DNA of 56,273 nucleotides, taken from assembly GCF_007845675.1 (NCBI RefSeq), contig NZ_VOBR01000027.1, forward strand, positions 77,994-134,266, read 5' to 3'. The DNA is from Lentzea tibetensis (GTDB taxonomy: Bacteria; Actinomycetota; Actinomycetes; Mycobacteriales; Pseudonocardiaceae). Shown here piece after piece: positions 17,263 to 53,551 of this stretch. Numbering within the stretch: the first letter of the stretch is position 1; each line of letters begins with the position of its first letter. Position numbers and translations under genes: made by a program. Below the pieces are notes generated by a model. It was not told the DNA's origin, made no database searches, and worked only from the letters and a program-made list of their open reading frames with translations.

Positions 17263-17282
17263 AGACGTACCGGGAGAGTCCC

Positions 17283-27273: not shown

Positions 27274-27312
27274 GGCCCGAGCATCGCAGAGGGGTCTGAC
27301 AGTCGCGTGCGG

Positions 27313-29609: not shown

Positions 29610-31235
29610 TCAGCTCAGCACCGCTGCGCGGTACGTCTCGTGGTCGCGGACCAGGTCCGAGTGCGTGCCGGACGCGACGAACCGGCCGTCCGACAGCAGC
29701 ACCACGCGGTCCGCGGCACCCAGCAGCGCGGGGGAGGAGGCGACGACGATCGTCGTCCTATCCCGGCGCATCTCCCGGATGCCCGCGGCGAGCGACACCT
29801 CGGTGACCGCGTCCACCGCGGTCGACGGGTCGTGCAGCACCAGCACCGGTGGTGCCAGCGCCAAAGCCCGTGCGAGAGCGACGCGTTGCCGCTGCCCGCC
29901 GGACAGCGACCGGCCGCGTTCGGACACCGGCGTCTCCAGCGGCAGCGTCAACGCGGACGCGTCCAGCGCGCCGTCGACGTCACCGACCACGTTGGACGCC
30001 ACGGTTCCCTCGAACAGATCGGCGTCGTGCGCGGCGACCACCACCGAGCCGCGCAACGAGGACACGTCCACAGTGGACACGCACACGCCGTCCAGCTCGA
30101 CGGACCCGGCCGTGGGGTCGACCTCGCGGCCCAGCAGCCGCAGCAGCGCGGCGGCGTCCGCCGGATCCGGTGCCACGACACCGAGCAGCTCGCCCGGCCG
30201 CACCTCGAGATCCAGTGACCGCAACGAGTCCGAGCTCACGCCGGACAACCGCAGGTGCCCGCGCACGTCGGACGGCAGCGAGCCAGCAGCGGGCGGAACC
30301 GCGTACGGGGCCGAGAGGACCTCGGTCACCCGCTTCGCGGAAGCCCTGCCCTGCGCGAACAAGCCGTTCACCCACGAGAAGATGGTCAACGGCCACAACA
30401 GGAACTGCGCGAGCCCGACGGCCGCCACGAGCTGACCGACGGTGATGTCGCCCTGCACGGCCAGCTTGCCGCCGACCAGTGCGATCAGTGCCAGGAACAA
30501 CCCGGTCAGCGTCAGCACGGAGCCTTCGAGCAACGACTGCGCCCGCGCGGCGCGCACGGCCGCGACCAGCGAGCCCTGGCTGGTGAGGTGGTAGCGGGAC
30601 GCGGCGGTCGACTCGGCGCCGATGCCCTTCAACGCCCGCAGCCCGCTCACCAGGTCCGCTGCGATGCCGGACGCCTGCGCGGCGCGGTCCTGCTCGGCCT
30701 CGCTGCGCCGTTCCAGCGGCTTGCCGAGCAGGTGCGCGAGCACCAGCATCAGCGGTGCCACGACGAGGATCAGCAGGCCGAGCGGCACGGACACCCGCAG
30801 CAGCGCGACCGCGCCGACGACCAGCCCGACGACCGCGGCGAACGCGATCGGCAGCGCCAGGTTCACCGAGCCGACGCGCTTCGCGTCACCGGTCGCGATG
30901 CTGGCCAGCTCACCGGACAGCCGCCCGTTCTCCGCACCGCCACCGCTGTGCAGGACGCGCGCGGTCAGCTCCATCCGAATCGCATGTGAGGCCCGCTCGG
31001 ATCCGCGTTCGCCGAGCCGCAGGGAGAACCGGAAGCTCAGCGACAGCACCACGAACAGTCCGATCAGCACCGCGACCAACCGCGCCAGCGCGCCCGCGTC
31101 GCCGGTGGCCACCGCCTCGTCGATGATCACGCCGATCAGTACCGGGACGAGTGCCTCTCCTGTCTGGTGCATCGCGCCGAGCGCGGAAGCCGCGCTGACA
31201 CAACGCCATTGGCCGGCGATCGCACGCCACAGCAC
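29610..31235 (-). CDS. ABC exporter half with degenerate ATP-binding site
   Basis: A 541-aa permease-ATPase fusion from GTG 31235 behind AGGAGGTGG. The six-helix membrane domain is normal. In the ATPase part, Walker A is lost (VVAPDPADAAALL instead of GxxGxGKST), the Walker B glutamate is Pro (VLVLHDPSTAVD) and the H-loop His is missing (IVVASSPAL). The LSGGQRQR signature is intact and can complete the active site of the partner at 27893-29599. Ten bp separate the genes. An iron-box palindrome lies upstream, shared with the divergent monooxygenase, so iron repression of export is expected. Confidence 0.85.
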   Translation of the reverse strand: MLWRAIAGQWRCVSAASALGAMHQTGEALVPVLIGVIIDEAVATGDAGALARLVAVLIGLFVVLSLSFRFSLRLGERGSERASHAIRMELTARVLHSGGGAENGRLSGELASIATGDAKRVGSVNLALPIAFAAVVGLVVGAVALLRVSVPLGLLILVVAPLMLVLAHLLGKPLERRSEAEQDRAAQASGIAADLVSGLRALKGIGAESTAASRYHLTSQGSLVAAVRAARAQSLLEGSVLTLTGLFLALIALVGGKLAVQGDITVGQLVAAVGLAQFLLWPLTIFSWVNGLFAQGRASAKRVTEVLSAPYAVPPAAGSLPSDVRGHLRLSGVSSDSLRSLDLEVRPGELLGVVAPDPADAAALLRLLGREVDPTAGSVELDGVCVSTVDVSSLRGSVVVAAHDADLFEGTVASNVVGDVDGALDASALTLPLETPVSERGRSLSGGQRQRVALARALALAPPVLVLHDPSTAVDAVTEVSLAAGIREMRRDRTTIVVASSPALLGAADRVVLLSDGRFVASGTHSDLVRDHETYRAAVLS

Positions 31236-31344: not shown

Positions 31345-32619
31345 ATGCCGTCTGAGCCCGTGCACGACCTCGTCGGAATTGGTTTCGGTCCGTCCAACCT
31401 CGCGCTGGCGATCGCCGTTCACGAGCACGAACGGCCTGTCACCGCGCGGTTCTTCGAGAAGCAGCCCGCATTCGGGTGGCACCGGGGCATGCTGCTCGAG
31501 GATGCCACGATGCAGGTCTCGTTCCTCAAGGACCTCGTCACACTCCGCAACCCGCGCAGCGAGTTCAGCTTCCTCTGCTACCTGCGCGACCGGGGCAGGC
31601 TGATCGACTTCGTCAACCACAAGAACCTCTTCCCGCTGCGCGTGGAGTTCCACGACTACTTCGAGTGGGCGGCGGAAAAGGTCGCGCACCTCGTGTCCTA
31701 CGGCACGGAAGTGGTTCAGGTCACAAGTGACGGTGACGTATTCGAGGTCACCACGAACGACGGCCAGGTGACGGTGGCGCGCAATCTCGTGATGGCGACG
31801 GGACTCGAGCCGAACCTGCCGGAGGGAATCGAGACCGGCGAACGGATCTGGCACAACCGGGAACTGCTGCACCGCGTCGAGCAGGTGAACGACCCGCAAC
31901 GATTCGTCGTCGTCGGCGCCGGCCAGAGCGCGGCCGAGGTGACCGCGTTCCTGCACGACCGCTTCCCCGCGGCCGAGGTGTGCGGTGTGTTCGCCCGCTA
32001 CGGCTACAGCCCGGCCGACGACAGCTCGTTCGCGAACCGCATCTTCGACCCCGCGGCCGTCGACGACTTCTACTCCGCGCCCGAGGACGTCAAGCGCAAG
32101 CTGATGGCGTACCACGGGAACACGAACTTCGCGGTGGTCGACCTCGATCTCATCCAGGAGCTGTACCGGCGCGTCTACCGCGAGAAGGTGCTGAACCGCC
32201 AGCGGTTGCGGCTCTACAACACGTCCAGGCTCGTCGATGTCGCCGACGACGGCGCGAAGGTCAGCGCGACGGTCGAATCGCTCGCCGACGGCAGCCGGCG
32301 GAATGTCGAAGCCGATGTCGTTGTGTATTCGACCGGTTACCGTCCGGCGAATCCGGTCAGGTTGCTGGGAAGTCTCGCCGAACATTGTCGCCGCGACGCC
32401 GACACGCGACTGAAGATCGACCGCGACTACCGCGTCGTCACGTCGCCTGACCTGCGGTGCGGCATCTACCTGCAGGGCGGCACGGAACACACGCACGGCA
32501 TCACGTCCTCGCTCTTGTCGAACACCGCGGTGCGCGTGGGTGAGATCTTGGGCTCAATTCTTGATCACGGCGCAGCTGTGACCGTTCCGCAGTCGCGCAT
32601 CGCCGTCAGCGTGGGTTAG
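31345..32619 (+). CDS. L-ornithine N5-monooxygenase
   Basis: A 424-aa flavoprotein of the SidA/PvdA/IucD family. FAD site VGIGFGPSNLALA, the family-diagnostic MQVSFLKDLVTLRNPRSEFSFLCYL, NADPH site VVGAGQSAAE, and the C-terminal YSTGY motif are present. The FLKDLVTLRNP form is that of ornithine rather than lysine hydroxylases. It hydroxylates the side-chain amine of free L-ornithine with FAD, NADPH and O2, supplying the hydroxyornithine units demanded by the NRPS downstream. Transcription starts next to iron boxes, so it should be repressed in iron-replete cells. Confidence 0.92.
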   Translation: MPSEPVHDLVGIGFGPSNLALAIAVHEHERPVTARFFEKQPAFGWHRGMLLEDATMQVSFLKDLVTLRNPRSEFSFLCYLRDRGRLIDFVNHKNLFPLRVEFHDYFEWAAEKVAHLVSYGTEVVQVTSDGDVFEVTTNDGQVTVARNLVMATGLEPNLPEGIETGERIWHNRELLHRVEQVNDPQRFVVVGAGQSAAEVTAFLHDRFPAAEVCGVFARYGYSPADDSSFANRIFDPAAVDDFYSAPEDVKRKLMAYHGNTNFAVVDLDLIQELYRRVYREKVLNRQRLRLYNTSRLVDVADDGAKVSATVESLADGSRRNVEADVVVYSTGYRPANPVRLLGSLAEHCRRDADTRLKIDRDYRVVTSPDLRCGIYLQGGTEHTHGITSSLLSNTAVRVGEILGSILDHGAAVTVPQSRIAVSVG

Positions 32620-32634
32620 GGTGCCCTCAATTCG

Positions 32635-32650
32635 GTTAGGTTTACCTAAC
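32635..32650. promoter_or_regulatory. Iron box upstream of the siderophore-binding protein
   Basis: GTTAGGTTTACCTAAC is symmetric apart from the central pair and contains TTAGG-N4-CCTAA of the DtxR/IdeR/DmdR consensus. It lies 30 bp before the ATG at 32680. Confidence 0.85.
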
Positions 32651-32679: not shown

Positions 32680-33684
32680 ATGTCTCGGATGAGAGGGCTG
32701 CCGATCGTGGCGGTCTCGCTGGCCGCCGCGATGGCGCTGGCTGCGTGCGGTGGGGGCAGCAGTGCCCAGCCTGGTGGCAACACGACCGCGCAGACCGGTG
32801 CTTTCCCGGTCACCGTCGAGCACAAGCTCGGCAAGACCGAGATCAAGTCCGAGCCGAAGCGGGTCGTCACCCTCGGCCTGTCGGACCACGACGCCGTGGT
32901 GGCGCTCGGCGTCAAGCCGGTCGGCGTCATCGACTGGTTCAAGGAGCGCCCGTGGGGCAACTGGCCGTGGCTGGCCGGCAAGCTCGGTGACACGCCGCCG
33001 GAGATCGTCGGCGAGCGCGACGAGTACAACGTCGAGAAGATCGCGTCGCTGAAGCCGGACCTGATCCTGGCGCACTACTCCGGCATCAAGAAGGAGCAGT
33101 ACGACACGCTGTCGCAGATCGCTCCGGTCGTCGCGCAGGTCCCCGGCTTCGAGGACTACGGCGCCCCGATGCAGGAGATGGCCAAGCTGACGGCCAAGGC
33201 GCTCGGCCGCTCCGCCGAGATGGACAGGCTCATCGCCGAGATGGACGGCAAGTTCAAGGCCGTCCGCGACAAGCACCCCGAGTGGGCAGGCAAGACGGCT
33301 CTCGTGGCCGACTCGTTCCAGGCGGGCAACTTCGCGGTCTTCGCGGACCACGACCCGAAGATGAAGTTCATGCTGGACCTCGGCTTCAAGCTGCCGGAGA
33401 GCATCAAGAAGGAAGTCGGCAAGTCGAACGTCGTCGACTACAGCTACGAGAAGCTGGACGTGCTGGAGGCGGACCGCCTCGTCTGGCTGATGAGCAGCCC
33501 GCAGGTGGTCGAGGGGATCAAGGGCCAGGAGCTGTACAAGCGCACGAACGTGGTGAAGGACGACCACGTTCTGTACCTGACCTACCAGGACCCGCCCGTC
33601 GGTGCCGCCATGTCGTTCAACACGGTGCTGAGCATCCCCTACGCGCTCGACAACGTGGTGCCGAAGCTCGAAGCGATCAAGTAG
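32680..33684 (+). CDS. Iron-siderophore ABC transporter binding lipoprotein
   Basis: A 334-aa protein from ATG 32680 (GAAGGGAAG before it). The lipoprotein signal ends LAAC with Cys23. The mature part is a FepB/FhuD-type class III binding protein: SEPKRVVTLGLSDHDAVVALGVKPVGV, VGERDEYNVEKIASLKPDLILAHYSG, YDTLSQIAPVV, and a long central helix. It captures ferric hydroxamate outside the membrane and passes it to the FecCD permeases at 50722-52766. It has its own iron box and is followed by a hairpin terminator, so it is a short transcript or the leader of the NRPS operon with attenuation. Confidence 0.9.
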   Translation: MSRMRGLPIVAVSLAAAMALAACGGGSSAQPGGNTTAQTGAFPVTVEHKLGKTEIKSEPKRVVTLGLSDHDAVVALGVKPVGVIDWFKERPWGNWPWLAGKLGDTPPEIVGERDEYNVEKIASLKPDLILAHYSGIKKEQYDTLSQIAPVVAQVPGFEDYGAPMQEMAKLTAKALGRSAEMDRLIAEMDGKFKAVRDKHPEWAGKTALVADSFQAGNFAVFADHDPKMKFMLDLGFKLPESIKKEVGKSNVVDYSYEKLDVLEADRLVWLMSSPQVVEGIKGQELYKRTNVVKDDHVLYLTYQDPPVGAAMSFNTVLSIPYALDNVVPKLEAIK

Positions 33685-33700
33685 CAGTTGTGAAGTGGTA

Positions 33701-33726: not shown

Positions 33727-33770
33727 AGCCATGTCCGAGCCCTGTCGTAGTCTCGCGGAAGGCAGTCGTT

Positions 33771-36700
33771 GTGATGTTCGGTGGTTCCCACGCTCTGCCT
33801 CTCACCGGTGCGCAGACGGGGATCTGGCTGGCCCAGCAGATCGAGCCGGAGAACCCGGTCTACAACATCGCGTGGTGCCTCGAACTGCGCGGCGACGTCG
33901 ACCTCGCGCTGCTGGAGAAGTCGGTGTGCCAGGCCGTTCTCGAGACCGGCAGCCTGCACGTCGAGTTCGCCGAGCACGACGGCGTTCCGGTGCAGATCCC
34001 GGTTCCCCCGACGTGCCCGTTCACGCTGCTCGACCTGCGCGGTGAGTCCGATCCGGACAGTGCGGCGGACGAGCTCATGTGGGCGGACCTGGACACCATC
34101 GGCCGCCCGGTGTTCCACCAGATGATCATCCGGCTCGCCGACGACCGCGTGCTGTGGTTCCAGCGCTACCACCACCTCGTGATGGACGCGCGCGGCAACC
34201 TGATGCTCGTCGCGCGCGCCGCCGAGCTGTACAGCGCGTGCGGCGGTGAGCACGTCGACCGCCCGGTCTCCGCGCTCGTCGAGCACGACCAGATGTACCG
34301 CACGTCGCACCTGCACGACGACGACCGGGCCTACTGGCTCGACCTGCTCGCCGACCACCCCGAGCCGGTGCGGCTCGTCGAACGGTCCTCCGGCCAGGCC
34401 CGTGAGGTCGTGCGCCGCCGGGTCGAGGTGCCCGGCCACCACCGCGCGTCCCGTCAGGTGATCGCCGCGATGGCCGTGTACCTGCACCGGGTCTCCGGTG
34501 CCACCGACCTCGTGCTCGGTCTCCCGGTCACCTCGCGGCTCGACGAGGCGACGGTCACGACGCCCGGCATGTGCTCGACCGTGCTGCCGCTGCGGCTCAC
34601 CGTGCGGCCCGGCACGACGCCGGCCGAGCTGGTTCCCCAGGTGAACGACCAGGTTCGCGCGCTCGTGCGGCACAGCCGGTACCGCGGCGAGGACATCGCC
34701 CGCGACCTCGGCGTCGCCGACGGCATTCCGCAGCTCGTCGGCCCCACGCTCAACTACGTGCGCGTCGACAGCTACATCCACTTCGGCGACCTGGCGGTCG
34801 TGCCGAACACGTTGTCGCTCGGTCCCGTCAACGACCTCTCGCTGTCCGTGCTGGAGATGCCGGACGGCGTGCTGGTGCTGGAGTTCGAGGCGAACGCGCG
34901 GCTGTGCTCGCCGCGCGACCTCGCCGAGCACGACCGCCGCTTCCGCGCCGTGCTGGCCGCGATGAAGGAACACCCCGACCGCTCGGTCGGGCTGATCGAC
35001 CTCGCGACGGAGTCCGAGAAGGAGCTGGTGCTCGACGAGTTCGGCACCGCGTCGCGCATCGTCGACGAGGTCAGCTGGACCGGCGCGTTCGAACGTCAGG
35101 CCGCCGCACATCCGGACAAGACGGCCGTGGTGTGCGAGGAGAAGAGTCTCACCTACGCCGAGCTGAACGCGGCGGCGAACCGGCTGGCCCGTCTGCTGCA
35201 CTCTCGGGGTGTGCGGCAGGAGGACGTCGTCGGCGTCGCGCTGCCGCGGTCGATCGACCTCGTGGTCGCGTTGCTGGGCGTGATGAAGGCGGGCGCCGCC
35301 TACCTGCCGCTCGACCTCGACCACCCGGCCGACCGCGTCGAGTTCATGCTGACCGACGCGGGCGCGCAGCTGGTGATCGACGAGGAGTTCCTGCGGGACA
35401 ACGACCCCAGCGAGTTCGAGTCGTCCGATGTGGAGGGCCCAGGGGGTGTTCACCACGCGGCGTACGTGATCTACACGTCGGGGTCGACCGGCCAGCCCAA
35501 GGGCGTCGTCGTGACGCACGAGGGCATCGGCAGCCTGGTCGCCACGGCGACCGACCGCATCGGCATCACGCCGGAGAGCCGCGTCGTGCAGTTCGCGTCC
35601 GTCGGTTTCGACGTGACGGTGTGGGACCTGGTGATGTCCCTGTGCGTCGGTGGCACCGCGATCGTCGTGCCGTCCGAACGCCGGGTCGCCGGTGCCGCGC
35701 TCACCGACTACATCAACGCGCACGACGCCACGCACATGATCCTGCCGCCGTCGCTGGTGGCGGCGCTGCCGCCGGAGTGCGAGCTGCCCGAGGGCGCGGT
35801 GCTGGTCGTCGGCACCGAGACCGTCCCGACCGAGTTGATCGCGCGCTGGGCGCGTCGCATGCGCGTCGTGGCCGCGTACGGGCTCACCGAGGCCACGGTC
35901 AACTCGACGCTGTGGCGCGCTTCGCCGGACTGGACCGAAGCCGTTCCCATCGGCGTGCCGGACCCCAACACCCGGTGCTACGTGCTGGACTCCGCGCTGC
36001 GCCCGGTGCCGGTCGGCGTCGAGGGCGAGCTGTACGTCGCCGGTCGCGGACTCGCTCGCGGCTACCTCGGCAGGCACGCGCTCACGGCTGAGCGGTTCGT
36101 CGCCGACCCGTTCGGCGGCGCCGGTGAGCGCATGTACCGCACCGGTGACCGCGCGCGCTGGCGCGAGGACGGCGACCTCGACTTCCTCGGCCGCGCCGAC
36201 GGCCAGGTCAAGATCCGCGGTTTCCGCATCGAGCCCGGGGAGGTCGAGAGCGTCCTGATGGCGCACCCGGACATCTCGCAGGCCGCCGTGGTGGTGCTGG
36301 CGGACCACCGTCGCGCCAAGCGGCTCGTCGCGTACGTCGTCGGCTCGGCTGACACGGGCACGGCCCGCGCGCACGTCGCCAGGTCGTTGCCGGAGTACAT
36401 GGTCCCGTCGGTGGTCGTGCGCGTCGACGGCCCGCTTCCGCTGACGCCCAACGGAAAGCTCGACCGCAAGGCGCTGCCCGCCCCGGACTGGACCGCGACC
36501 GCGGGTGACGCCCCGCCCACCAACGACACCGAGCGCACGCTGGCCGGCCTGTTCGCCGACGTGCTGAAGCTCGACGCCGTCGGCATCCACGACAGCTTCT
36601 TCGAGCTGGGTGGCGACAGCATCGTCGCCATGCAGCTCGTTGGGCGGGCGCACCAAGCCGGTCTGGTGATCACGCCGCGCGAGGTGTTCACGCTCCGGAC

Positions 36701-39700
36701 GGTCGCCGGGTTGGCCGCTGTCGCCGGTGCTCCTGTCGCCGCGGCCGGCGAGGTCGAACTGGTCGACCCCGCGCTGGTCGCCCTGTTCGGGGACGCCGGT
36801 GAGGTGCTGCCGGTTTCGCCGCTGCAGGAAGGGTTCTACTTCCACGCGCAGTTCGACGAGGACGACTCGTACGTCGTGCAGGAGGTGCTCACGCTCGGCG
36901 CGACGGTGGATGTCGCCGAGGTGCGCGCGGCCGTGCAGGGGCTGCTGGACCGGCATCCGTTGTTGCGGGCCGGGTTCCGGCAGAGCGACGACGGCCGGAT
37001 CGTGCAGGTGGTGCCGGGGGCGGCCGAGCTGCCGTGGACCGAGTACGACGGCGAGCTCGACGCCGGGCTCGAGGCTGAGCGCGCCAAGGGCTTCGACCTC
37101 GCCCGGCCGCCGCTGATCCGCGCCGCCCTGATCAAGCTGGGGGAGACGGACCGGCGGCTGGTGCTGACGCTGCACCACATCCTGGTCGACGGCTGGTCGG
37201 TCGCCCTGTTGCAGCAGGAGCTGGCCGGTGGGGTCGCTGTCGCCGACTCCGCGGGCACGGACTACTTCCGCTGGCTCGTCACCCGTGACCGCGACGCCGC
37301 GCGCACCGCGTGGCGCACCGCGCTGTCCGACGTCGACGAGCCGACCGTCCTCGTCCCCGAGCCGGGGGACCGGCACGGCCAGCACAGCGTCTCCCTCACC
37401 CCGGAGCTGACCAAGGCGCTGACCACCAGGGCGAGGCAGCTCGGCCTGACCCTCGGCACGGTCCTGCACGGTGCGTGGGGTCTTCTGCTGGGCGGCATGA
37501 CAGGCCGCGCGGACGTCGTGTTCGGCAGCACGGTCGCCGGACGTCCCGCCGAGGTCGCGGGCATCGAGTCCGCGGTGGGCCTGTTCATCAACACGGTCCC
37601 CGTGCGGCAGCGCTGGACCGGCACCGACACCCTGACCGACGTGCTGCGCCGCCTGCAGGACGAGCAAGCCGACCTGCTGGAGCACCAGCACCTCGGTCTG
37701 GCGGAGATCCAAAAGGCGGCCCAGAACCGAAATTCGGGGGGCGACCTGTTCGACACGCTCGTCGTGGTCGAGAACTTCCCCGAGGCACCCATCACCACCG
37801 GCGGCCTGGAGATCACGGCCGTCCAGGTCGATGATGCGGTGCACTACCCGCTCGCGCTCGTCGCGCTGCCGGGCGAGTGCCTGGAGCTGCGCCTCAAGCA
37901 CCGGATCGCGGACGAGGACGCCGAGGAGCTGAGTGCGCGCCTGGTGCGCGTGCTGGAGGCGTTCATCGAGAACCCCCAGCACCCGGTGGCGCGTCTGGAC
38001 CTGGTGTCGCAGCAGGAGAAGAACTGGCTGGGCGAGCTGAACGCGACCGACGTCGCCGTGCCGGAAGGCACGCTGGTCAGCCGCATCGCCGCGCAGACGA
38101 AGCGCACCCCGGACGCCACGGCGGTCACGTACGAGGGTGAGCAGGTCACCTACGCCGAGCTGGACCAGCGGGCCGAGCAACTCGCCCGCAGTCTGCGCGC
38201 ACGGGGCGCGGGCCCCGAGCAGGTGATCGCGGTCGCCGTGCCGCGCTCCGTCGAGCTCGAGGTCGCGCTGCTGGGTGTGCTCAAGTCCGGCGCCGCCTAC
38301 CTGCCGCTGGACCTGGACTACCCGGCCGACCGGCTGGCGTTCATGCTCGCGGACTCCGGCGCGAAGATCGTCGTCACCGCGGGCGACGTCGAGCTGCCGG
38401 ACGGCGTGACACCTGTCCGGATCGGCGTCGCCGAAGAAGTACCCGACTCCGAAGTGGTTGCGGCGCAACCGGACCACCCCGCGTACCTGATCTACACGTC
38501 CGGGTCGACCGGACGTCCCAAGGGCGTTGTGGTGACGCACCGGGCGATCGTGAACCGGCTCGCGTGGATGCAGCACGAGTACGGGCTCACCGCCGACGAC
38601 CGGGTGCTGCAGAAGACGCCGTCGAGCTTCGACGTCTCGGTGTGGGAGTTCTTCTGGGCTCTGTGCGAGGGTGCGTCGATCGTGTTCGCGAAGCCGGAAG
38701 GCCACCGCGATCCGGCCTACCTGGCCGAGCTGATCAAGACCGCGGGCGTTACCACGCTGCACTTCGTGCCGTCGATGCTGGGTGCGTTCCTGGAGGTCGT
38801 GGGGGAGGACGCGAGCTGGTCGGCCAGCCTGCGGCGGATCTTCAGCAGCGGTGAGGCGCTGACCGGTGACGTGGCAGGCCGCTGGTACGAGCTGACGGCC
38901 GTGCCGCTGCACAACCTGTACGGGCCGACCGAGGCCGCGGTCGACGTCACGTACCACCGGTACGACGGCGGGCGCGAGATCGCCGTGCCGATCGGTGCGC
39001 CGGTCTGGAACACCCGGCTGCACGTGCTGGACGCCTTCCTCCGTCCGGTGCCCGCCGGTGTGCCGGGCGAGCTGTACCTCGGGGGTGTGCAGCTCGCCCG
39101 CGGCTACCACGCGCGGCCGGGACTCACCGCTGAACGGTTCGTCGCGAACCCGTTCGACGGTGGGCGCATGTATCGCACCGGCGACCTGGTCCTGCGCCGC
39201 GAAGACGGTCAGATCGTCTACCTGGGACGGACGGACCGTCAGGTCAAGGTGCGCGGCAACCGCGTGGAGCTCGGCGAGATCGAGGCCGCGCTCGCCCAGC
39301 TGCCCGGTGTCGCCCGCGCGGCCGTGATCGCGCGGTCCAACCAGCTGCTCGGCTACGTCACGCCGAGCACGCTCGACACCGCCGAACTGCTGGCAGCACT
39401 CACCGAGGCACTGCCCGCCGCGATGGTGCCGACGCACGTGCTCGCGCTGGACGACTTCCCGCTCAGCCCGAGCGGCAAGCTCGACCAGAACGCACTGCCC
39501 TCACCGGCGGCCGCCGTGACCGCCGGCCGGGCACCGGCGACCGAACGCGAGCGCCTGCTGTGCGGGATCGTCCGGGAGGTGCTCGGGCTGCCGGAGATCG
39601 GCGCGGACGACGACTTCTTCGTGCTCGGCGGCGACAGCATCACGTCGATCGCCGTCTCCACCCGCGCCCGGCGCGCCGGGCTGGAGATCACCCCGCGCGA

Positions 39701-42700
39701 CGTCTTCGCGCTGCGCACGCCCGCGGCACTGGCCGCGCACGTGCCGGTCGACCGGTCCGATGTGGACGACCAGGAGATCGACGAGAAGCTCTGGCCGTTG
39801 TCTCCGCTGCAGGAGGGCCTGTACTTCCACTCCAGCTTCGACACGACCGAGCTGGACGTCTACCAGTCGCAGGAGACCGTCGACTTCGCCGGGCGGATCG
39901 ACGCCGACCGGCTGCGTGCGGCGGGCCGGGCGCTGCTGGAGCGCAACCCCAGCCTCCGCGCGGGTTTCACGAGCGAGCCGATGCAGGTCATCGCGGACGA
40001 CCTGGAGATCCCGCTGCGCGAGGTGGACCTCCGCGACCACCCCGACGAGCTGGCCGAGCTGCTCGCCGCGGACCGCAGGCACCGCTTCGACCTGGCGAAC
40101 CCGCCGCTGTGCCGGTTCATCCTGGTGCACCTCCCCGACCACGACCAGCTCGTCGTCACGCACCACCTGATCCTGTGGGACGGCTGGTCGGCGTGGCTGT
40201 TCTTCGAGCAGCTGTTCGGGCTCTACCAGGGCGAGACCGAGCTGCGCACGCCCGGCTCGTACCGCGACTACCTGTCGTGGTTGGGCCGCCAGGACTTCGA
40301 CGCGGCGCGTGCGGCGTGGCGCAGGGCGTTGTCCCGACTGGCCGAGCCGACGCTCGTCGCGACGGTCGACCGCTCCGGTGAACCCGTCATCCCGGACGAG
40401 CGCCACACCGAGCTCCCGGCCGAGCTCACCGACCGCGTGCGCGAGGAGACCCGCAAGCACGGGCTCACCGCGAACGCCGTCTACAGCGCGGCGTGGGGCT
40501 TCGTGCTCGCCAGCGCGGTCGGCCGCACGGACGTGGTGTTCGGCACCGCGATCGCCGGCCGCCCGGTCGAGGTCGACGACGTCGAGAACGTCATCGGCAT
40601 GTTCCTCAACACCATCCCGACCAGGCTCGCGCTGAACCCGCGCGAGTCGGTGGTGGAGCTGTTGCGGCGCACCCAGGACGAGCGCACGGAGCTGATGCCG
40701 CACGAGTACCTCGGTCTCGGTGAGGTGCAACGCGAGTCCGGCCACCGCACGTTGTTCGACACGCTGTTCGTGCTGCGCACCGCCGACGGCGACGACCGGC
40801 TCGCCGAGCTGACCAAGCGGTTCGGCATCACCGGACTGTCCAACGTGGACGGCACGCACTTCCCGCTGACGCTGATCGTCACGCCGGGGGAGCGGACCAG
40901 GATCACCATCGCGTCGCGGCCCGACCTCGTGACCGCTGACACCGTCACCGCGCTCATGGACCGCTACACGACCGCGCTCGAACGGCTGGTCGCGGACCTG
41001 GACGCGAGCGTCGGCACCCTTGACGTGGTGCCGGGCGACGAACGCGAGCAGCTCGCCGCGCAGTGGGACGCCTCGGCGAACCCGTTGCCGGACCGCACGA
41101 TCGCGGACCTGCTCGCCGACCAGGTGGCCCGCACTCCGGACGCGACCGCGCTGGTGTTCGGCGACCTGGTGCTCACCTACGCCGAGCTGGACGCGCGGAT
41201 CAACCGGCTCGCCCGCTTCCTGATCGCTCGCGGTGCAGGCCCGGAGAAGGTCGTGGCGCTGGCGTTGCCGCGTTCGGTCGAGATGGTCGTGGCGCTGTTC
41301 GCGGTGCTGCGCACGGGTGCCGCGTACCTGCCGCTCGACCTGGACCACCCGTTCGACCGGCTGCGGTTGATGATCTCCGACACCGGTCCGCTGTGCGTGC
41401 TGTCGACCTCGACGGTGGGGCTCGTGGACGACGCGGTGTGCCTGGACACCACCGAGATCGACTTCCCGAGCGACCCGGTCGAGGTGCGGTTCTCGCTGGA
41501 GCACCCGGCGTACGTGATCTACACGTCCGGCTCGACCGGCAGGCCGAAGGGCGTCGTCACGCCGTACCGCGGCCTGACGAACATGCACCTCAACCACCAG
41601 CAGGAGATCTTCGCCCCGGCCATCGCGAAGGCGGGCGGCAGGCGGCTGCGCATCGCGCACACCGTGTCGTTCGCGTTCGACATGTCGTGGGAAGAGCTGC
41701 TGTGGCTGGTGGAAGGCCACGAGGTGCACGTGTGCGACGAGGAGCTGCGGCGCGACGCCGAGGCGCTGGTCGCGTACTGCGACGCGCACGAGATCGACGT
41801 CGTCAACGTGACGCCGACCTACGCGCAGCTGCTCATCGAGGAAGGGCTGCTCGACGGGCACGTGCCGCCGGTGGTGCTGCTCGGCGGCGAGGCCGTGTCG
41901 GACACGGTGTGGTCGCGGCTGCGCGACACCGAAGGCACCTACGGCTACAACCTCTACGGCCCGACCGAGTACACGATCAACACACTGGGCGCGTCGACCG
42001 ACGACAGCAGGACTCCCGCTGTCGGCAGGGCGATCTGGAACACCCGTGCGTACGTGCTGGACGCGCACCTGCGTCCCGCCGCGCCGGGCACGCCCGGTGA
42101 GCTGTACATCGCCGGTGTAGGCCTGGCGCGCGGTTATCACGAGCGGTTCGGGCTCACGGCGGAACGCTTCGTCGCCGACCCGTTCGGTGAGCCGGGCGGC
42201 CGGATGTACCGCACCGGCGACCTCGTCTGCGCACGCCCGGACGGCATCCTGGACTTCCTCGGCCGCACCGACGACCAGGTGAAGATCCGCGGCTACCGGG
42301 TCGAGCTGGGCGAGATCTCCAGCGCCCTGATGGTCCGCCCGGACGTCGCGCAGGCCGCGGTCGTCCTGCGGGACAAGCGACTCGTCGCGTACGTGGTGTC
42401 CGATGTGGACACCGCTGAGCTGCGGGACGAGCTGAAGACGCGGCTGCCGGACTACATGGTCCCCAGGGTGATCATGCCGGTGGACGCGATCCCGCTGACC
42501 GTCAACGGCAAGCTCGACGTGACCGCGCTGCCCAAGCCCGAGATCGCGGTGGGTGCGGGCCGGGAGCCGTCCACCGAGCAGGAACGGGTGCTGTGCGGCC
42601 TGTTCGCCGAGGTGCTCGGCGTCGCGTCGGCCGGGCCGGACGACAACTTCTTCGACCTCGGCGGCCACTCGCTGCTCGCGACCAGGCTGGTCGGCAGGGC

Positions 42701-45700
42701 CCGCACGGCGCTGGGTGCCGAGCTGGCGATCCGCGACCTGTTCGAGGCGCCGACGCCCGCCGAGCTGGCGTTGCGCGGCACCGGTCCGGCGCGCCCCCGC
42801 CTCGTGCCGGTCGAACGGCCGGAGGAGCTGCCGCTGTCCGCCGCGCAGCAGCGGTTGTGGCTCATCCAGCAGATGGAAGGCACGTCGTCGGCGTACAACT
42901 TCCCGCTGGTGTTCACGTTGCGCGGCGACTTCTCGGTCGATGCTTTCACGCTGGCACTGGCGGACGTGGCCGGGCGGCACGAGGCGCTGCGCACGGTCTT
43001 CGGTGAACGCGAGGGCGTGCCGTTCCAGCGCGTGCTGGCCGGCGCGGAGCCGGTCGTCGAGGTGGTGGAGTCCGAGCAGGAGGTGTTCGACGCGGTCGAG
43101 CGCCCGTTCGAGCTCGGCACCGAGCTGCCGCTGCGGGCGGTGGTGACGCCTGTCGACGGCGGCCACCTGGTCGCGATCGTGCTGCACCACATCACCACCG
43201 ACGAGTGGTCGGACGTGCCGTTCCTGCGCGACCTCGAAGACGCCTACCTCGCGCGGGTTTCCGGGGCGGTACCGGTGTGGGAGCCGCTGACGGTCCAGTA
43301 CGCGGACTACACGGTGTGGCAGGACCTCCTGCTGGCGCAGGTCGGTTCCCAGCAGCTGGACCACTGGCAGCGGGCGCTGGCGGGCGCGCCGGAGGAGCTG
43401 GAGCTGCCGGTCGACCGGCCACGCCCGGCGCGGCCGACGTTCCACGGCGCGGACGTGACGGTGGAGCTCGCCGCGGACGTGGTCGCGGGCCTGCGCGAGC
43501 TCACCGGTGGCGCGTCGATGTTCATGGTGCTGCAGGCCGCGGTGGCCGCGCTGCTGCACCGGATGGGCGCCGGTGAGGACATCCCGCTGGGCGCGCCGAT
43601 CGCGGGCCGCACGGACTCGGCGCTCGACGACCTGGTCGGCTTCTTCGTCAACACGCTGGTGCTGCGCAACGACGTCTCGGGCGACCCGTCGTTCACCGAG
43701 CTGGTCGGCCGGGTGAAGGACCACGCGCTGGCCGCGTTCTCGAACTCGGACGTGCCGTTCGAGTCGGTCGTCGAGCGGATCAACCCGACCCGCTCGCTGG
43801 CGCGCAACCCGCTGTTCCAGGTGATGGTCGGCTACCACAGCCGGTCCGGCGAGTGGACCTCGTTCGCCGGGCTCGACCTGGAGGCGCGCGACGTCGAGAC
43901 GCGGACCGCCAAGTTCGACCTGGTGTTCAGCTTCACCGACTCCACCGACCGGATCTCCTGCCGGCTGGAGTACGCGACCGACCTGTTCGACGCCGTCACG
44001 GTCGAACGGCTGGGGGAGCGGCTGAACCTGCTGCTGGCGGCCGTGGTCGCCGACCCGGACGCGCCGATCAGCGACGTCGACCTGCTCGCCGACGACGAAC
44101 GGCAGCGCGTGCTGGAGGAGTTCAACGACACGCGCCGCGCGGTCGAGGAGAAGACGTTCCCGGAGCTGTTCGCCTCGTGCGTCGAGCGGTTCCCCGACTC
44201 CGTCGCGGTCGTCGACCGGGCCCGGTCGATCGACTACCGGTCGCTCGACCTGCTGTCGAACCGGGTCGCGCACCTGTTGGCCGGCAAGGGAGTTCAGCGG
44301 GAGAGCGTCGTCGGCATCGCGGTGCCGAAGTCGGTCGAGATGGTCGCGACCGTGCTCGCCGCGCTGAAGCTCGGCGCCGCGTACCTGCCGCTCGACTCGG
44401 CGCACCCGCGGGACCGGATCGACTACATGGTCGCGGACTCCGGCGCGGTGCTCGTGGTCGACGAGACCACGCTGACCGAGCTCGGTACCGACGAGTCCCC
44501 TGTGGACAGCGGTCCGGTCGGGCAGGGCAGCGCGGCGTACGTGATCTACACGTCCGGCTCGACCGGGCGGCCCAAGGGTGTGGTGGTACCGCACGACGGC
44601 ATCGCGTCGCTGGCCGCCACCGCGATCGACCGGATGAAGCTCACCTCCGACAGCCGGGTGCTGCAGTTCGCGTCGGTCGGTTTCGACGTGGCGGTGTTCG
44701 AGCTGACCATGGCGCTGACCGTCGGCGGACGGCTCGTGTTCGCACCGGACGAGGTGCGCGTCGCGGGGCCCGCGTTGACGGACTTCCTGCGCGACCGGCG
44801 GATCACGCACATGATCCTGCCGCCGTCGCTGGTGTCGGCGCTGCCACCGGACTGCGAGCTGCCCGAAGGCGGCACGATCCTGGTCGGCACCGAGACCGTG
44901 CCGCCGGACGTGATCAGCCGGTGGGCAGGCCACATGAACGTGCTGGCCGCGTACGGGCTCACCGAGGCCACGGTCAACTCGACGTTGTGGCAGGCGGATC
45001 CGGCGTGGGACAGCGCGGTGCCCATCGGCATCCCGGACCCGAACACCACGGTGTACGTGCTGGACGCGCGGCTGCGTCCCGTGCCGCCCGGTGTGGTCGG
45101 CGAGCTGTACGTCGGTGGACGCGGTCTGGCCCGTGGGTACATGGGCAAGCCCGCGCTCACGTCCGAGCGGTTCGTCGCGAATCCCTTCGACGGCGGCCGG
45201 ATGTACCGAACAGGTGACCGGGCTCGCTGGCGGGCCGACGGCAACCTCGACTTCCTCGGCCGGGTCGACACCCAGGTGAAGATCCGCGGTTTCCGCATCG
45301 AGCTCGGCGAGATCGAGGCTGCGCTGGCCCGGCACCCGGCGGTCACCCAGGCGGCCGTCGTCGCCGACCGGGATCGCGACATCACGCGGCTCGTCGCGTA
45401 CGTCGTGGGTGAGGACGAGGACCTCCGGGCGTTCGTGGCGGCGCAGCTGCCGGACTACATGGTCCCGGCGCTGGTGATCGAGCTGGACGGGCCGCTTCCG
45501 TTGACGCCCAACGGGAAGCTGGACCGCAAGGCGCTGCCCGCGCCGGACTGGTCCCGCCTCGCGGGTGACGACAAGCCGGTCACACCCGAGCAGAAGGCCG
45601 TCGCCGAGCTGTTCGCGGAGCTCCTCGGCCTCGAGTCGGTCGGCGTCCACGACAACTTCTTCGCGCTGGGCGGCCACTCCATGGCGTCCATGCGCCTGGT

Positions 45701-47039
45701 CGGCAAGCTGCGCGCGGCGTTCGGCGTCGATCTGGCGCTGCGCGACGTGTTCGACTCGCCGACGGTGGCGGCGCTGGCCGGGCGGCTCGGTTCCGGCGGG
45801 TCGCGGCGTCCGTTGCTGCGCAAGGCGGAACGGCCGGTGACGCTGCCGCTGTCGCCCGCGCAGCACTGGCAGTGGACGCGTGCCGAGGCGCACCCGTACT
45901 ACGACCACGCGCTCGCGTTGCGGTCGACAGGCTTCGACGTCGCCGCACTGGCGGCGGCGTGGGCTGACGTCGCCGAGCGGCACGAGCCGCTGCGCACGGT
46001 GTTCGTCGACGGGATGTCGGCGCGGACGGTTCCCGCGCCGGGGCTGGAGATCGTGCAGGTCGACGACCTGGACGCGCGGATGGCGGCGTACGCGGCCGAG
46101 CGGGTCGACCTGTCGGTCGCACCGGTGCGCGCCCGGCTGCTCGTCGGGCCGACCGAGCAGGCGATCCTGCTGACCATGCACTACGCGGTGGTCGACGAGT
46201 GGTCGGTCGTGCCGTTGTTCCGCGACCTCCAGGTCGCCTACGCGGCACGGCGTGAGGGGCAGGAGCCCGCCTTCACGCCGCTGCCCGTGGACTACGCGGA
46301 CTACGCGCTGTGGGCGCACGAGGTGCTCGCGTCGGTCGGTGAGGAACAGCTGGCGTTCTGGCGGCAGACGCTGCGCGGGCTGCCCACGCCGTTCGGTCCA
46401 TCCACATCGGACCGCACCGCGGGCGTCGTCGGCTTCGCACTGGACTCGGCGCTGCACGTGGCCGTCGACCAGCTGGCCCGCGACACCGGGACGAGCATGT
46501 TCATGGTGCTGCAGGCAGCACTCGCGGCCGTGCTCACCCGGCGCGGCTTCGGCACCGACGTCCCGGTCGGCACGCTGGTCGCGGGACGCACCGAGGAGGC
46601 GCTGGCCGACCTGGTCGGCACGTTCTTCACCACGGTCGTCCTGCGCACCGACACCGGGGGAGCGCCGAGCTTCACCGAGCTGCTGTCGCGGGTGCGCGAG
46701 ACCAACCTGACCGCGCTGTCGCACGCCGACGTGCCGTTCGACGCGCTCGGCATTCCCGCACCGCAGATCATGGTGGTGCACCACGAGCAGGCTCAGCTCG
46801 AGGCGCTGGAGGGTGGCATCGGGACGCTCGACGGTGTCCCGGTCGGGTCGTCCGGCACCGACCTGACCCTGAGCTTCTACGAACCGTTCGGCGACGAACC
46901 GGTACCGTGCTTCCTGATCCACGCTGCCGCTGTGTTCGACCACCAGACCGCGCGGGGCATCGCGGACGAGCTGCTCGGCTTGCTGCGTGCCGCCGTCACC
47001 GACCCGGCAGTTCCCATCACCAGGAGGATCGAGTCATGA
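33771..47039 (+). CDS. Four-module NRPS (hydroxamate siderophore synthetase)
   Basis: A 4422-aa enzyme from GTG 33771 (GGAAGG 8 nt upstream; ATG 33774 possible). Order: C1 about 5-430 (HHLVMDA at 134); A1 440-920; T1 (Ser950); C2 (HHILVDG at 1135); A2; T2 (Ser1956); C3 (HHLILWDG at 2131); A3; T3 (Ser2967); C4 (HHITTDE at 3139); A4; T4 (Ser3970); C5 4015-4420 with HYAVVDE at 4137. No epimerase or thioesterase motif was seen. Hand-read ten-residue codes: A2 DVWHFSLVDK (Ser), A3 DMENLGLINK (N5-hydroxyornithine), A1 DVWILVAVNK, A4 DVFIIVAVNK (unassigned, alike). The X-Ser-hOrn-X order and terminal C domain resemble erythrochelin/foroxymithine-type synthetases that release a diketopiperazine. Acyl-hydroxyornithine for A1 and A4 is inference. 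It is coupled to MbtH by ATGA. Confidence 0.93.
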
Positions 47040-47230
47040 CCAACCCGTTCGAGGACCCGCAGGGCCGGTTCTTCGTGCTCGTGAACGACGAGCAGCAGCA
47101 CTCGCTGTGGCCGTCGTTCGCCGAGGTGCCCGCGGGCTGGACCAAGGTGTTCGGCGACGACACCCGCGAGGCGTGCCTGGCCTACGTCGAGGAGAACTGG
47201 ACCGACATGAGGCCGGCCTCTATTCGCTGA
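47036..47230 (+). CDS. MbtH-family NRPS chaperone
   Basis: A 64-aa protein from ATG 47036, overlapping the NRPS stop by 4 bp, with AGGAGG inside the NRPS end. The MbtH signature is complete: [33 protein letters not shown], ending [14 protein letters not shown]. MbtH proteins bind adenylation domains and are needed for their solubility or activity. It therefore serves the upstream synthetase. It overlaps the convergent NAD(P)-binding gene by 11 bp. Confidence 0.95.
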
Positions 47231-50683: not shown

Positions 50684-50690
50684 GATACGG

Positions 50691-50704
50691 TTAGGCTCAC
50701 CTAA
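50691..50704. promoter_or_regulatory. Iron box upstream of the FecCD importer operon
   Basis: TTAGGCTCACCTAA is TTAGG-N4-CCTAA, matching the other two iron boxes of the island. It lies 17 bp before the GTG at 50722, so iron-loaded DtxR/IdeR/DmdR would block the start of the operon. Confidence 0.85.
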
Positions 50705-50721: not shown

Positions 50722-51741
50722 GTGAGCACGGCGGTCAGGACTGAAGCGCGCGCTCTGCGCGGTGCCGGCCTGGTCGTCGCGCTCGCCGTGCTCGTGCTGA
50801 CGTGCCTGCTGAGCCTGTGGATCGGCTCGCGGGACATCCCGTTCACGGACACGCTCAGCGTGCTGTTGAGCGACGACGGGTCCGTCGAGTCGCTGATCAT
50901 CCGCGACCACCGGCTGCCGCGCACGATCATCGGCGTCCTCGTCGGTGCCTCGCTCGGGCTGGCGGGCGCGCTGATGCAGTCGCTGACCCGCAACCCCCTC
51001 GCCGACCCCGGACTGCTCGGTGTCCAGTTCGGCGCGTCCGCGGCCGTGGTCGTCGGCATCGCGTTCCTCGGCATCGGGTCGATCACCGGCTACCTGTGGC
51101 TCGGGCTCTTGGGCGCCGCCGCCGCGTCGGTCGTGGTGTACGTGCTCGGCGCGGCCGGGAGCGGCGCCGCCTCGCCGGACCGGCTGGTGCTCGCGGGTGC
51201 CGCGATCAGCGCCGTGCTGCTCGCGTTCGTGTCGGCCGTGCTGCTGCTCTACCCGATGTCGTTCATGTCGTTCCGCTTCTGGAACGTCGGCTCCATCGCC
51301 GGCCGCCAGATGGACGTCGTCCTGCGCATCGCGCCGGTGATGCTGGCGGGCATCCTGCTGACGCTCGGGCTGACTCGGTCGCTGAACATCCTCGCGCTCG
51401 GCGAGGAGACCGGCAGCGCGCTCGGCGCGAACGTCGGCCGCATCCGGCTGCTCGGCGGCATCGCGGTGACCTTGCTGTGCGGCGCGGCGACCGCGGCGGC
51501 CGGGCCCATCGGGTTCATCGGGCTGACCGTCCCGCACGCCGCGCGTGCACTCGGCGGCTCGGACCACCGCTGGGTGCTGCCGTACTCGATGGTGCTCGCG
51601 CCGATCCTCCTGGTGGGTGCGGACATCCTGGGCCGCGTGATCGCGCGGCCCGGTGAGGTGGAGGTCGGGATCGTGACGGCCGTGCTGGGCGCGCCCGTGT
51701 TCATCGCGCTGGTGCGGCGCAGGAAGCTGGCGCAGCTGTGA
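50722..51741 (+). CDS. FecCD-family iron-siderophore ABC permease 1
   Basis: A 339-aa protein from GTG 50722 with AGGGGG upstream. Typical FecCD pattern: RDHRLPRTIIGVLVGASLGLAGALMQSLTRNPLADPGLLGVQFGASAAV after the first helix and GPIGFIGLTVPHAARAL near the ATPase-contact loop. About ten membrane helices. It forms, with the next gene, the pore for import of the ferric siderophore delivered by the lipoprotein at 32680-33684. Coupled to the next gene by GTGA. Confidence 0.9.
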   Translation: MSTAVRTEARALRGAGLVVALAVLVLTCLLSLWIGSRDIPFTDTLSVLLSDDGSVESLIIRDHRLPRTIIGVLVGASLGLAGALMQSLTRNPLADPGLLGVQFGASAAVVVGIAFLGIGSITGYLWLGLLGAAAASVVVYVLGAAGSGAASPDRLVLAGAAISAVLLAFVSAVLLLYPMSFMSFRFWNVGSIAGRQMDVVLRIAPVMLAGILLTLGLTRSLNILALGEETGSALGANVGRIRLLGGIAVTLLCGAATAAAGPIGFIGLTVPHAARALGGSDHRWVLPYSMVLAPILLVGADILGRVIARPGEVEVGIVTAVLGAPVFIALVRRRKLAQL

Positions 51742-52766: not shown

Positions 52767-53551
52767 CGCGGCTGCGCGGGGAGAACCTGACGCTCGCCTA
52801 CGACGAGCGCACCGTTGCGTCCACTTTGGACGTCTCCGTCCCCGACGGCTCGTTCACCGTGATCGTCGGGCCGAACGCGTGCGGCAAGTCGACGCTGCTG
52901 AAGGCGTTGGCGCGCATGCTGAAGCCCACCGAGGGCACGGTGTACCTCGACGGCGCGGCCATCGCGTCGTACCGGTCGAAGGAGGTCGCGCGCAGGCTCG
53001 GCCTGCTGCCGCAGACGTCCATCTCGCCGAACGGCATCACGGTCGGGGAGCTGGTCGCGCGCGGCCGGTACCCGCATCAGAAGCTGTTCCGCCAGTGGTC
53101 GCCCGAGGACGAGGCGGTCGTCGCCGAGTCCATGCGCAAGACCGGCGTGGACGACCTCACCGACCGGCTCGTCGACGAGCTGTCCGGCGGGCAGCGGCAG
53201 CGCGTGTGGCTCGCCATGGTGCTCGCGCAGCAGACGTCGATCCTGCTGCTCGACGAGCCGACGACGTTCCTCGACATCGCCCACCAGCACGAGGTGCTGG
53301 ACCTGTGCGCGGACCTGCACGAGGACGGCGCGCACACGCTCGTCGCCGTGCTGCACGACCTCAACCAGGCCTGCCGCTACGCCACGCACCTGATCGTCAT
53401 GAAACCGGGCGAGGGCATCGCCGCCGAGGGTGACCCGGTGCGGATCATGACGGCGGAGCTGGTGGAGGACGCGTTCGGCCTGCCGTGCCGCGTCGTCGAC
53501 GACCCGGAGACCGGCACGCCGCTCATCGTGCCGCTCAAGCGCCAGCGCTAG
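52763..53551 (+). CDS. Iron-siderophore ABC transporter ATPase (FepC type)
   Basis: A 262-aa protein from ATG 52763. Walker A GPNACGKSTL, Q-loop LLPQTSISPNGITVGELVARGRYPH (FepC/FhuC-characteristic), signature LSGGQRQR, Walker B LLLDEPTTFLDIAHQ and H-loop VLHDLNQA are all intact. It powers the two FecCD permeases and completes the importer. Last gene of the iron-regulated operon. Confidence 0.92.
   Translation: MTRLRGENLTLAYDERTVASTLDVSVPDGSFTVIVGPNACGKSTLLKALARMLKPTEGTVYLDGAAIASYRSKEVARRLGLLPQTSISPNGITVGELVARGRYPHQKLFRQWSPEDEAVVAESMRKTGVDDLTDRLVDELSGGQRQRVWLAMVLAQQTSILLLDEPTTFLDIAHQHEVLDLCADLHEDGAHTLVAVLHDLNQACRYATHLIVMKPGEGIAAEGDPVRIMTAELVEDAFGLPCRVVDDPETGTPLIVPLKRQR

What the first reader, a model, noticed from the sequence alone, without database searches (positions are those of the whole stretch)
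33771..47039. Four-module NRPS whose codes read X-Ser-hOrn-X and that ends in a condensation domain
Reading the pocket residues by eye gives DVWHFSLVDK for A2 (a serine code) and DMENLGLINK for A3 (the N5-hydroxyornithine code). A1 and A4 share another code. With C-A-T four times, a terminal C and no thioesterase, this parallels the known erythrochelin/foroxymithine logic: hydroxamate at residues 1 and 4, Ser at 2, hOrn at 3, release by cyclising to a diketopiperazine. The island also has ornithine N5-monooxygenase, MbtH, importer and exporter. The exact product may be new because the A1/A4 code is not one I can assign.
Basis: partly seen in the sequence, partly recalled or inferred. Interest (0 to 1): 0.8.

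Follow-up and report, generated by a model that had tools for sequence, protein, structure and literature searches.

The report
Foroxymithine-type iron-siderophore assembly line
This is the giant enzyme by which a soil bacterium most likely makes a known kind of iron-scavenging molecule (foroxymithine type), and two of its bond-forming domains lack the histidine usually thought essential, which makes an open question about such enzymes testable.

Summary
One 4422-aa gene (33771-47039 +) encodes C-A-T x4 plus a terminal C, no thioesterase. By alignment the codes are DVWIVGAVNK, DVWHFSLVDK (Ser), DMENLGLINK (hOrn), DVFILGAVNK; A1 and A4 are close, not identical. Exporters, ornithine monooxygenase, binding protein, MbtH and FecCD importer flank it, with two iron-box-like sites. 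It belongs to the foroxymithine/erythrochelin family; codes and E-less layout equal those of Streptomyces gardneri. The NRPS I take for EtcD has Ala, not Ile, at pocket position 278 and carries epimerases. All 30 genomes checked with Ile/Val-278 at A4 hold a siderophore-type formyltransferase; here it lies in trans and is core to the genus (25 of 25), whereas the NRPS is in 1 of 25. Expected product: foroxymithine or a stereoisomer, probably not new. Unexpected: over 106 distinct family NRPSs the second His of HHxxxDG is kept in C2 and C4 (and in 42 of 42 C1), never in C3, which should acylate the N5-hydroxylamine, and in only 8 of 105 assignable C5, the presumed diketopiperazine-release domain. 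Coelichelin-type C3 domains share the loss (30 of 30 loci).

The parts
33771..47039 (+). NRPS, 4422 aa, C-A-T x4 plus terminal C, no thioesterase, no epimerisation domain
33774..35030 (+). C1, starter-type condensation domain (HHLVMDARG; second His present)
35037..36482 (+). A1, code DVWIVGAVNK, predicted N5-formyl-N5-hydroxyornithine
36606..36623 (+). T1 carrier-protein LGGDSI motif
36765..38030 (+). C2, groups with C domains that follow E domains; HHILVDGWS intact
38034..39503 (+). A2, code DVWHFSLVDK, serine
   Evidence: code called Ser-activating in PMC3795760
39624..39641 (+). T2 carrier-protein motif
39786..41054 (+). C3, predicted to acylate the N5-hydroxylamine of hOrn; [10 protein letters not shown], position of the second catalytic His is Leu (codon 40167-40169)
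41061..42536 (+). A3, code DMENLGLINK, N5-hydroxyornithine
42657..42674 (+). T3 carrier-protein motif
42792..44111 (+). C4, L-to-L type; HHITTDEWS intact
44118..45542 (+). A4, code DVFILGAVNK, predicted N5-formyl-N5-hydroxyornithine
45597..45788 (+). T4 carrier protein
45804..47024 (+). C5, terminal condensation-like domain, predicted site of diketopiperazine release; HYAVVDEWS (position of the second His is Tyr, codon 46182-46184), C7 motif lost, HHE at 46779-46787
47036..47230 (+). MbtH-like protein, start overlaps the NRPS stop
31345..32619 (+). L-ornithine N5-monooxygenase
32680..33684 (+). siderophore-binding lipoprotein (Peripla_BP_2)
29610..31235 (-). ABC exporter half 1
27893..29599 (-). 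ABC exporter half 2
50722..51741 (+). FecCD permease
51738..52766 (+). FecCD permease
52760..53551 (+). siderophore ABC-importer ATPase
32631..32649 (+). iron-box-like palindrome before the binding protein and NRPS (2 mismatches to a recalled consensus)
50686..50704 (+). iron-box-like palindrome before the importer (3 mismatches)

Best explanation
An iron-regulated siderophore assembly line of the foroxymithine type. Inferred order of events: ornithine is N5-hydroxylated by the island's monooxygenase; part of it is N5-formylated by a formyltransferase encoded elsewhere in the genome; A1 and A4 load N5-formyl-hydroxyornithine, A2 Ser, A3 hydroxyornithine; C1 acetylates residue 1; C2 joins residue 1 to Ser; C3 joins the Ser carboxyl to the N5-hydroxylamine of residue 3, creating the third hydroxamate; C4 joins residue 3 to residue 4; the free alpha-amine of residue 3 then attacks the T4 thioester to release a diketopiperazine, with C5 as the platform. 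Shown here: architecture, codes, family, neighbours, in-trans formyltransferase gene, His pattern. Inferred: substrates, bond positions, iron control, product and stereochemistry.
For: Architecture and codes. All four codes equal those of S. gardneri (L199). Module 3-4 + C5 tree: window inside the family, sister to an 11-row Saccharothrix-group clade (support 100). A4 position 278 is Ile/Val in 30 checked genomes, all with the formyltransferase; it is Ala in 3 (putative EtcD and two others), 1 of 3 with it. The gene is beside the ornithine monooxygenase in 15 of 39 fetched family loci and unlinked in the window's clade. Own copy C55:77773-78708; present in 25 of 25 genus genomes. Iron-box-like sites: two, with a mean of 0.00 in 100 shuffles.
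Against: No formyltransferase in the island. The in-trans copy is a genus core gene that 24 genomes without this NRPS also carry, so its presence is only weak evidence for formyl and it may serve another pathway. C2 and C3 fall with domains that follow epimerases, yet there is no E domain, so configuration cannot be read. Salinispora (L198) and G256 (L060) have Ala-278 in A1 together with a formyltransferase, so the 278 rule is not strict for A1.
Confidence: 0.8

Rival explanations
1. An erythrochelin-type (N5-acetyl) product: A1 and A4 load N5-acetyl-hydroxyornithine made by an acetyltransferase in trans.
For: Same family; erythrochelin assembly also uses enzymes from more than one cluster (PMC4519757 passage). 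The genome holds a strong Acetyltransf_8 gene at C2:44165 (152 bits); its surroundings (L214) were fetched but not analysed.
Against: The putative EtcD has Ala-278 in A1 and A4 and E domains after modules 1 and 2; the window has Ile-278 and no E. The one family locus with an acetyltransferase-like gene nearby (L084, 65 bits) has DVFALGCVNK at A4.
Confidence: 0.1
2. A new stereoisomer or congener: same residues as foroxymithine but D-residues, another N-terminal acyl group, or linear or hydrolysed release.
For: C2 and C3 belong to the branch of C domains that usually take D-donors although no E domain is present; configuration and N-terminal acyl group cannot be read from the sequence.
Against: The Streptomyces foroxymithine-type NRPSs have the same E-less layout and the same kind of C2 and C3.
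Confidence: 0.2
3. A silent or non-functional relic acquired horizontally.
For: NRPS found in 1 of 25 genomes of the genus.
Against: Intact 13-kb frame with all expected domains, complete transport set, iron-box-like sites.
Confidence: 0.05

Closest known systems
Foroxymithine synthetase (Streptomyces venezuelae and relatives)
   Same: C-A-T x4 + terminal C without E or TE; Ser-hOrn middle; Ile-278 in A1 and A4; S. gardneri has identical codes
   Different: Formyltransferase lies about 3 kb upstream of the NRPS in S. zaomyceticus and S. gardneri but is unlinked here; separate branch of the module 3-4 tree
Erythrochelin synthetase EtcD (Saccharopolyspora erythraea; here L077, identity inferred)
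   Same: Same four-module logic, Ser and hOrn codes, terminal C with HYxxxDEWS, C3 with HHLxLWDGWS
   Different: E domains after modules 1 and 2; Ala-278 in A1 and A4
Coelichelin synthetase CchH type (identified here by frame length and identity, inferred)
   Same: Its hOrn module is preceded by a C domain of the same clade lacking the second His (30 of 30 loci; tree with 3 of them)
   Different: Frames of about 3650 aa; three modules (PMC9854754 passage); no terminal C (recalled)
NRPS of Thermocrispum agreste (L078), probably for thermochelin (siderophore named in PMC7347517 passage; link to this NRPS inferred)
   Same: Same family, hOrn at 3, DVFILGAVNK at 4
   Different: E domains after modules 1 and 2; A2 DPEDLGTVQK

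Membership tests
foroxymithine/erythrochelin-type NRPS | four C-A-T modules, terminal C, no TE | tested here: met
foroxymithine/erythrochelin-type NRPS | A2 Ser, A3 N5-hydroxyornithine | tested here: met
   by code only
foroxymithine/erythrochelin-type NRPS | A1 and A4 codes of the family | tested here: met
   DVWIVGAVNK in 33 of 51 and DVFILGAVNK in 45 of 51 family NRPSs, window included
foroxymithine/erythrochelin-type NRPS | phylogenetic placement with these synthetases | tested here: met
   51-row tree; 83-domain tree
foroxymithine subtype | no E domains | tested here: met
   23 of 51 family members have no gap long enough for an E
foroxymithine subtype | N5-hydroxyornithine formyltransferase available | tested here: met
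   gene present in trans only, C55:77773-78708; activity and use by this pathway not tested
foroxymithine subtype | tri-hydroxamate diketopiperazine product with N-acetyl | not testable with these tools
   needs LC-MS/NMR
erythrochelin subtype (EtcD) | E domains after modules 1 and 2 | tested here: not met
erythrochelin subtype (EtcD) | Ala-278 in A1 and A4 | tested here: not met
   Ile in both
canonical condensation domain (C3, C5) | HHxxxDG with second His | tested here: not met
   Leu in C3, Tyr in C5

The most novel reading that the evidence does not exclude
Hydroxamate-forming condensation domains are a distinct, so far unnamed C-domain subtype: C domains that acylate the N5-hydroxylamine of hydroxyornithine (foroxymithine, erythrochelin and coelichelin lines and their relatives) have discarded the second catalytic His (Leu, Phe, Met or Thr in front of a WDGWS motif) because a hydroxylamine needs no general base, and the terminal diketopiperazine domain has mostly lost it too (Tyr), with a remodelled C-terminal lobe (C7 lost, HHE gained). 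The motif would predict side-chain versus backbone linkage from sequence.
Probability: 0.6. Interest if true: 0.65.

Novelty: new member of a known kind. Interest (0 to 1): 0.5.

Why it matters
As a siderophore cluster it is a new host and another genomic arrangement (formyltransferase in trans) of a known pathway. The wider point is the natural experiment inside one protein: five C domains, three predicted to make bonds with alpha-amines and keeping the second His, one predicted to acylate a hydroxylamine and one to cyclise, both without it. What that His does is described as still debated in a 2024 review (PMC11546977, passages), and this family offers matched domains in one enzyme on which it can be tested. 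A motif that tells N5-linked from alpha-linked hydroxyornithine would also improve structure prediction from genomes.

Tried and rejected
A formyl- or acetyltransferase inside the window: looked for by phmmer with the two own-genome proteins, none. Two of the genome's three Formyl_trans_N hits (C34, C52) look by eye like Fmt (beside a deformylase-like ORF) and PurN and were set aside; C55 matches formyltransferase models but no NCBIfam model over its cut-off. NCBIfam on the NRPS was uninformative (best 25 of 106 shown): siderophore-synthetase models (EntF, MxcG) stayed below cut-off, while scores summed over four A domains lifted unrelated adenylation models (DltA, MenE) over theirs. A dual epimerase/condensation reading of C2 and C3: no HH(I/L)xxxxGD motif seen by eye in their N-termini (motif recalled, no call). 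That C3 keeps a working His through a one-residue shift: not excluded for most members, since the His at the first position is nearly invariant (101 of 106), but excluded for two domains from another family of the host's order with no His at either place (NRQFLVWDGWS, SRRFLLWDGWS). A search for the code strings found only the Ser code in one paper. Searches joining hydroxamate chemistry with C-domain motifs brought up no paper that I recognised as describing the His loss (one search listed 15 of 56 papers; of these papers I read passages of PMC8097023, PMC11546977, PMC10212144 and PMC9854754 only). Structure predictions of C5 (mean pLDDT 90.2) and C3 (83.6) give complete-looking C folds but no coordinates, so active-site geometry was not tested; only C5 was compared with the PDB. 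Rfam (gathering threshold) and tRNA scans of the window were empty.

Rows dropped or corrected: own-genome NRPS L086 left out of code tallies and family counts; 131 NRPSs reduce to 106 distinct ones by a stretch around the motif. In one search, C2 of L048, L050 and L052 (and their named duplicates) were mis-picked C3 domains, and the C5 of L085 was a mis-picked C4 (order check); the real C2 of the three reads HHILLDGWS, and L085 is set aside, which gives 8 of 105 for C5. A first count of C1 (40 of 40) contained mis-picks and left out the named loci; the corrected count is 42 of 42, with 9 of 51 NRPSs lacking a recognisable C1. G089, G298 and G068 were left out of the formyltransferase-versus-278 count because their codes were not determined; G068 has no such formyltransferase; L087 was not held. 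Codes printed show W or E at position 239 for some A domains because of alignment slips; one search is the reference reading. Fetched and not used: L212, L213, L214.
Full report
What is there. The window holds one uninterrupted NRPS gene, 33771-47039 (+), 4422 aa, with strongly biased codon GC. Pfam finds five Condensation, four AMP-binding and four PP-binding stretches and no thioesterase; placement by profiles built from the window gives C1 A1 T1 C2 A2 T2 C3 A3 T3 C4 A4 T4 C5. There is no room for an epimerisation domain in any inter-A gap (517, 519, 527 aa). Flanks by Pfam: two ABC exporters on the minus strand, ornithine N5-monooxygenase, siderophore-binding protein, MbtH overlapping the NRPS stop, and, after other genes, two FecCD permeases and an ATPase. 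Two iron-box-like palindromes lie before the binding protein and before the importer; 100 shuffles give a mean of 0.00 (consensus recalled).

Codes. The window reads DVWIVGAVNK, DVWHFSLVDK, DMENLGLINK, DVFILGAVNK (final Lys taken as given). DVWHFSLVDK is given as a Ser-activating code in PMC3795760 (one passage seen); that DMENLGLINK means N5-hydroxyornithine is recalled.

Family. With A4-T4-C5 as query, 55 of 298 genomes of the host's family match at E <= 1e-230. Among 51 NRPSs read in full (window, 39 of the host's family, 11 others) A3 is DMENLGLINK in 51, A2 is DVWHFSLVDK in 32, A1 is DVWIVGAVNK in 33, A4 is DVFILGAVNK in 45. A tree of modules 3-4 plus C5 places the window as sister to an 11-row Saccharothrix-group clade (support 100), with the EtcD-like pair and the Streptomyces foroxymithine-type group in other branches (quick method, 13 of 48 inner branches open, some long branches). 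E-less members (23 of 51 by gap length; some gaps are distorted by split A hits) occur in at least two separate parts of that tree, so loss of E has probably happened more than once (inference).

Which acyl group. L077 comes from a contig of 8,212,805 bases, which I recall as the S. erythraea chromosome; its NRPS has E domains after modules 1 and 2 and DVWALGAVNK / DVFALGAVNK, as expected for erythrochelin synthetase EtcD. S. gardneri has the window's four codes exactly and, with S. zaomyceticus, the E-less layout. A Streptomyces NRPS of 4817 aa on an 8,223,505-base contig (L275) fits S. venezuelae (inferred), in which foroxymithine was identified and tentatively matched to an NRPS cluster (PMC9769785 passages) and for which mutants exist (PMC11005364 passages). 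A4 position 278 is thus Ala in the putative acetyl line and Ile (Val in three) in the foroxymithine-type group. A siderophore-type formyltransferase is present in 30 of 30 checked genomes with Ile/Val-278 at A4 and in 1 of 3 with Ala. The only family locus with an acetyltransferase-like gene nearby, L084, has Ala-278 at A4. Against a strict rule: A1 is Ala-278 in Salinispora (L198) and in G256 (L060), both with formyltransferase; and the formyltransferase is also in 24 genus genomes without this NRPS, so its presence alone proves little.

Formyltransferase in trans. It is next to the ornithine monooxygenase in 15 of 39 fetched family loci, two of them partial at the stretch end; in three more (G009, G036, G295) it lies within about 1 kb of the fetched stretch. 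In the window's clade the exporters sit beside the monooxygenase instead, and the formyltransferase lies far away: for example NRPS at 2.18 Mb and formyltransferase at 3.97 Mb in G172. In the host it is at C55:77773-78708, beside a second ornithine monooxygenase (67% identical to the window's) and an amidohydrolase. It is found in 25 of 25 genomes of the genus (in two pieces in G170), the NRPS in 1 of 25; the second monooxygenase is adjacent in 9 of 9 genus loci looked at. The NRPS therefore looks like an addition to a genus that already makes formyl-hydroxyornithine for something else (inference). Assembly from more than one cluster is reported for erythrochelin and rhodochelin (PMC4519757 passage).

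The catalytic histidines. HMMER alignments to solved C domains put the window's C5 in register as HYxxxDE and C3 as HLxxxDG. Over 131 NRPSs, 106 distinct (corrected): second His kept in C4 106 of 106; in C2 103 of 103 assigned by profile, and the three mis-picked ones read HHILLDGWS; in C3 0 of 106 (97 Leu, 6 Phe, 3 Met); in C5 8 of 105 (96 Tyr, 1 Trp); in C1 42 of 42 that have one. C3 is the domain that, from the structures of erythrochelin and foroxymithine (recalled), must join Ser to the N5-hydroxylamine rather than to an alpha-amine. Independent test: C domains before other DMENLGLINK modules. Coelichelin-type loci (named by frame length and identity; same N5 linkage, recalled) lack it in 30 of 30, as do 7 loci from 6294-7390-aa Streptomyces NRPSs (L216, L255-L260), L274 from a 4153-aa frame, and two NRPSs from another family of the host's order. 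Against a simple link to the hOrn substrate, of 17 fetched non-coelichelin loci with that code, 11 lack it and 6 keep it (L264, L265, L267-L270). I do not know the products of those six; an alpha-linked hydroxyornithine, as in kineochelin (PMC13238742 passages) or amychelin, is a guess.

Trees of C domains. In an 83-domain tree, 17 of 18 His-less hOrn-type C domains form one clade (100/99); the eighteenth lies just outside beside two His-bearing ones; 11 of 11 terminal C domains form one clade (100/100) inside the half that holds C4. The window's C2 and C3 fall in the other half, with domains that follow epimerases. C5 has also lost the C7 region (NPxR..RNPLF) and gained a conserved HHE, yet is predicted as a complete C fold (mean pLDDT 90.2), closest by Foldseek to DhbF and to PCP-C didomain entries (fuscachelin, recalled), with X domains of glycopeptide synthetases also high.

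Interpretation. A hydroxylamine is largely unprotonated at neutral pH and a strong nucleophile, so a base may be dispensable in C3; in C5 the attack is intramolecular, by the free alpha-amine of residue 3. This is inference from general chemistry. PMC11546977 (passages) calls the role of the second His debated, notes that its mutation does not always abolish activity, and cites a C domain with HQxxxDM, so loss of that His is not without precedent. PMC8097023 (passages) reports an HHxxxDE variant whose Glu helps but is not essential. The C-domain subtypes in the passages of PMC10212144 that I saw include none for hydroxamate formation. My searches for a prior description brought up none that I recognised, in an open-access library only.

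Verdict. Real, almost entirely correctly read, and ordinary as a product prediction: a foroxymithine-type siderophore line in a new host with a formyltransferase in trans. The His pattern is the part worth following.

Noticed in passing
G000:C55, L208:6897-10708: Genus-core locus with a second ornithine N5-monooxygenase divergent from the formyltransferase, plus an amidohydrolase; its own product is unknown.
   Followed up: partly
window 26731-27873 (-): Two adjacent mycothiol-S-transferase (DinB-like, PF04978) genes directly beside the exporters.
   Followed up: no
window 53606-55549 (+): Family 59 glycoside hydrolase (galactocerebrosidase-like) right after the siderophore importer.
   Followed up: no
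window 3119-4366 (+): ATP-grasp protein with a weak match to an L-amino-acid-ligase C-terminal domain, possibly a dipeptide-making enzyme.
   Followed up: no
window 16157-23979 (+): LacI-like regulator (by eye), SBP_bac_5 binding protein with permease-like genes (by eye) and a family 1 glycosidase, possibly one operon.
   Followed up: no
L280, L283 and other Streptomyces loci: Giant NRPSs (6294-7390-aa frames) with a His-less C domain before an hOrn module; products not identified.
   Followed up: partly
L055, L068, L071, L072, L075, L078, L079, L081, L082, L198, L200-L205, L207: Family members whose second module does not read the usual Ser code (such as DPQDFGVVQK, DAWDFGCIQK), so the residue-2 position varies naturally, often with an E domain.
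   Followed up: partly
L086 (G000:C23:22001-42000): Another 4827-aa NRPS of the host with codes DVPNLALVEK twice and DVADVGVVVK twice; unassigned.
   Followed up: no
window 33639-39437 (-) and 39501-46943 (-): Very long antisense open frames (1932 and 2480 aa) opposite the NRPS, probably an artefact of high GC at third positions.
   Followed up: no
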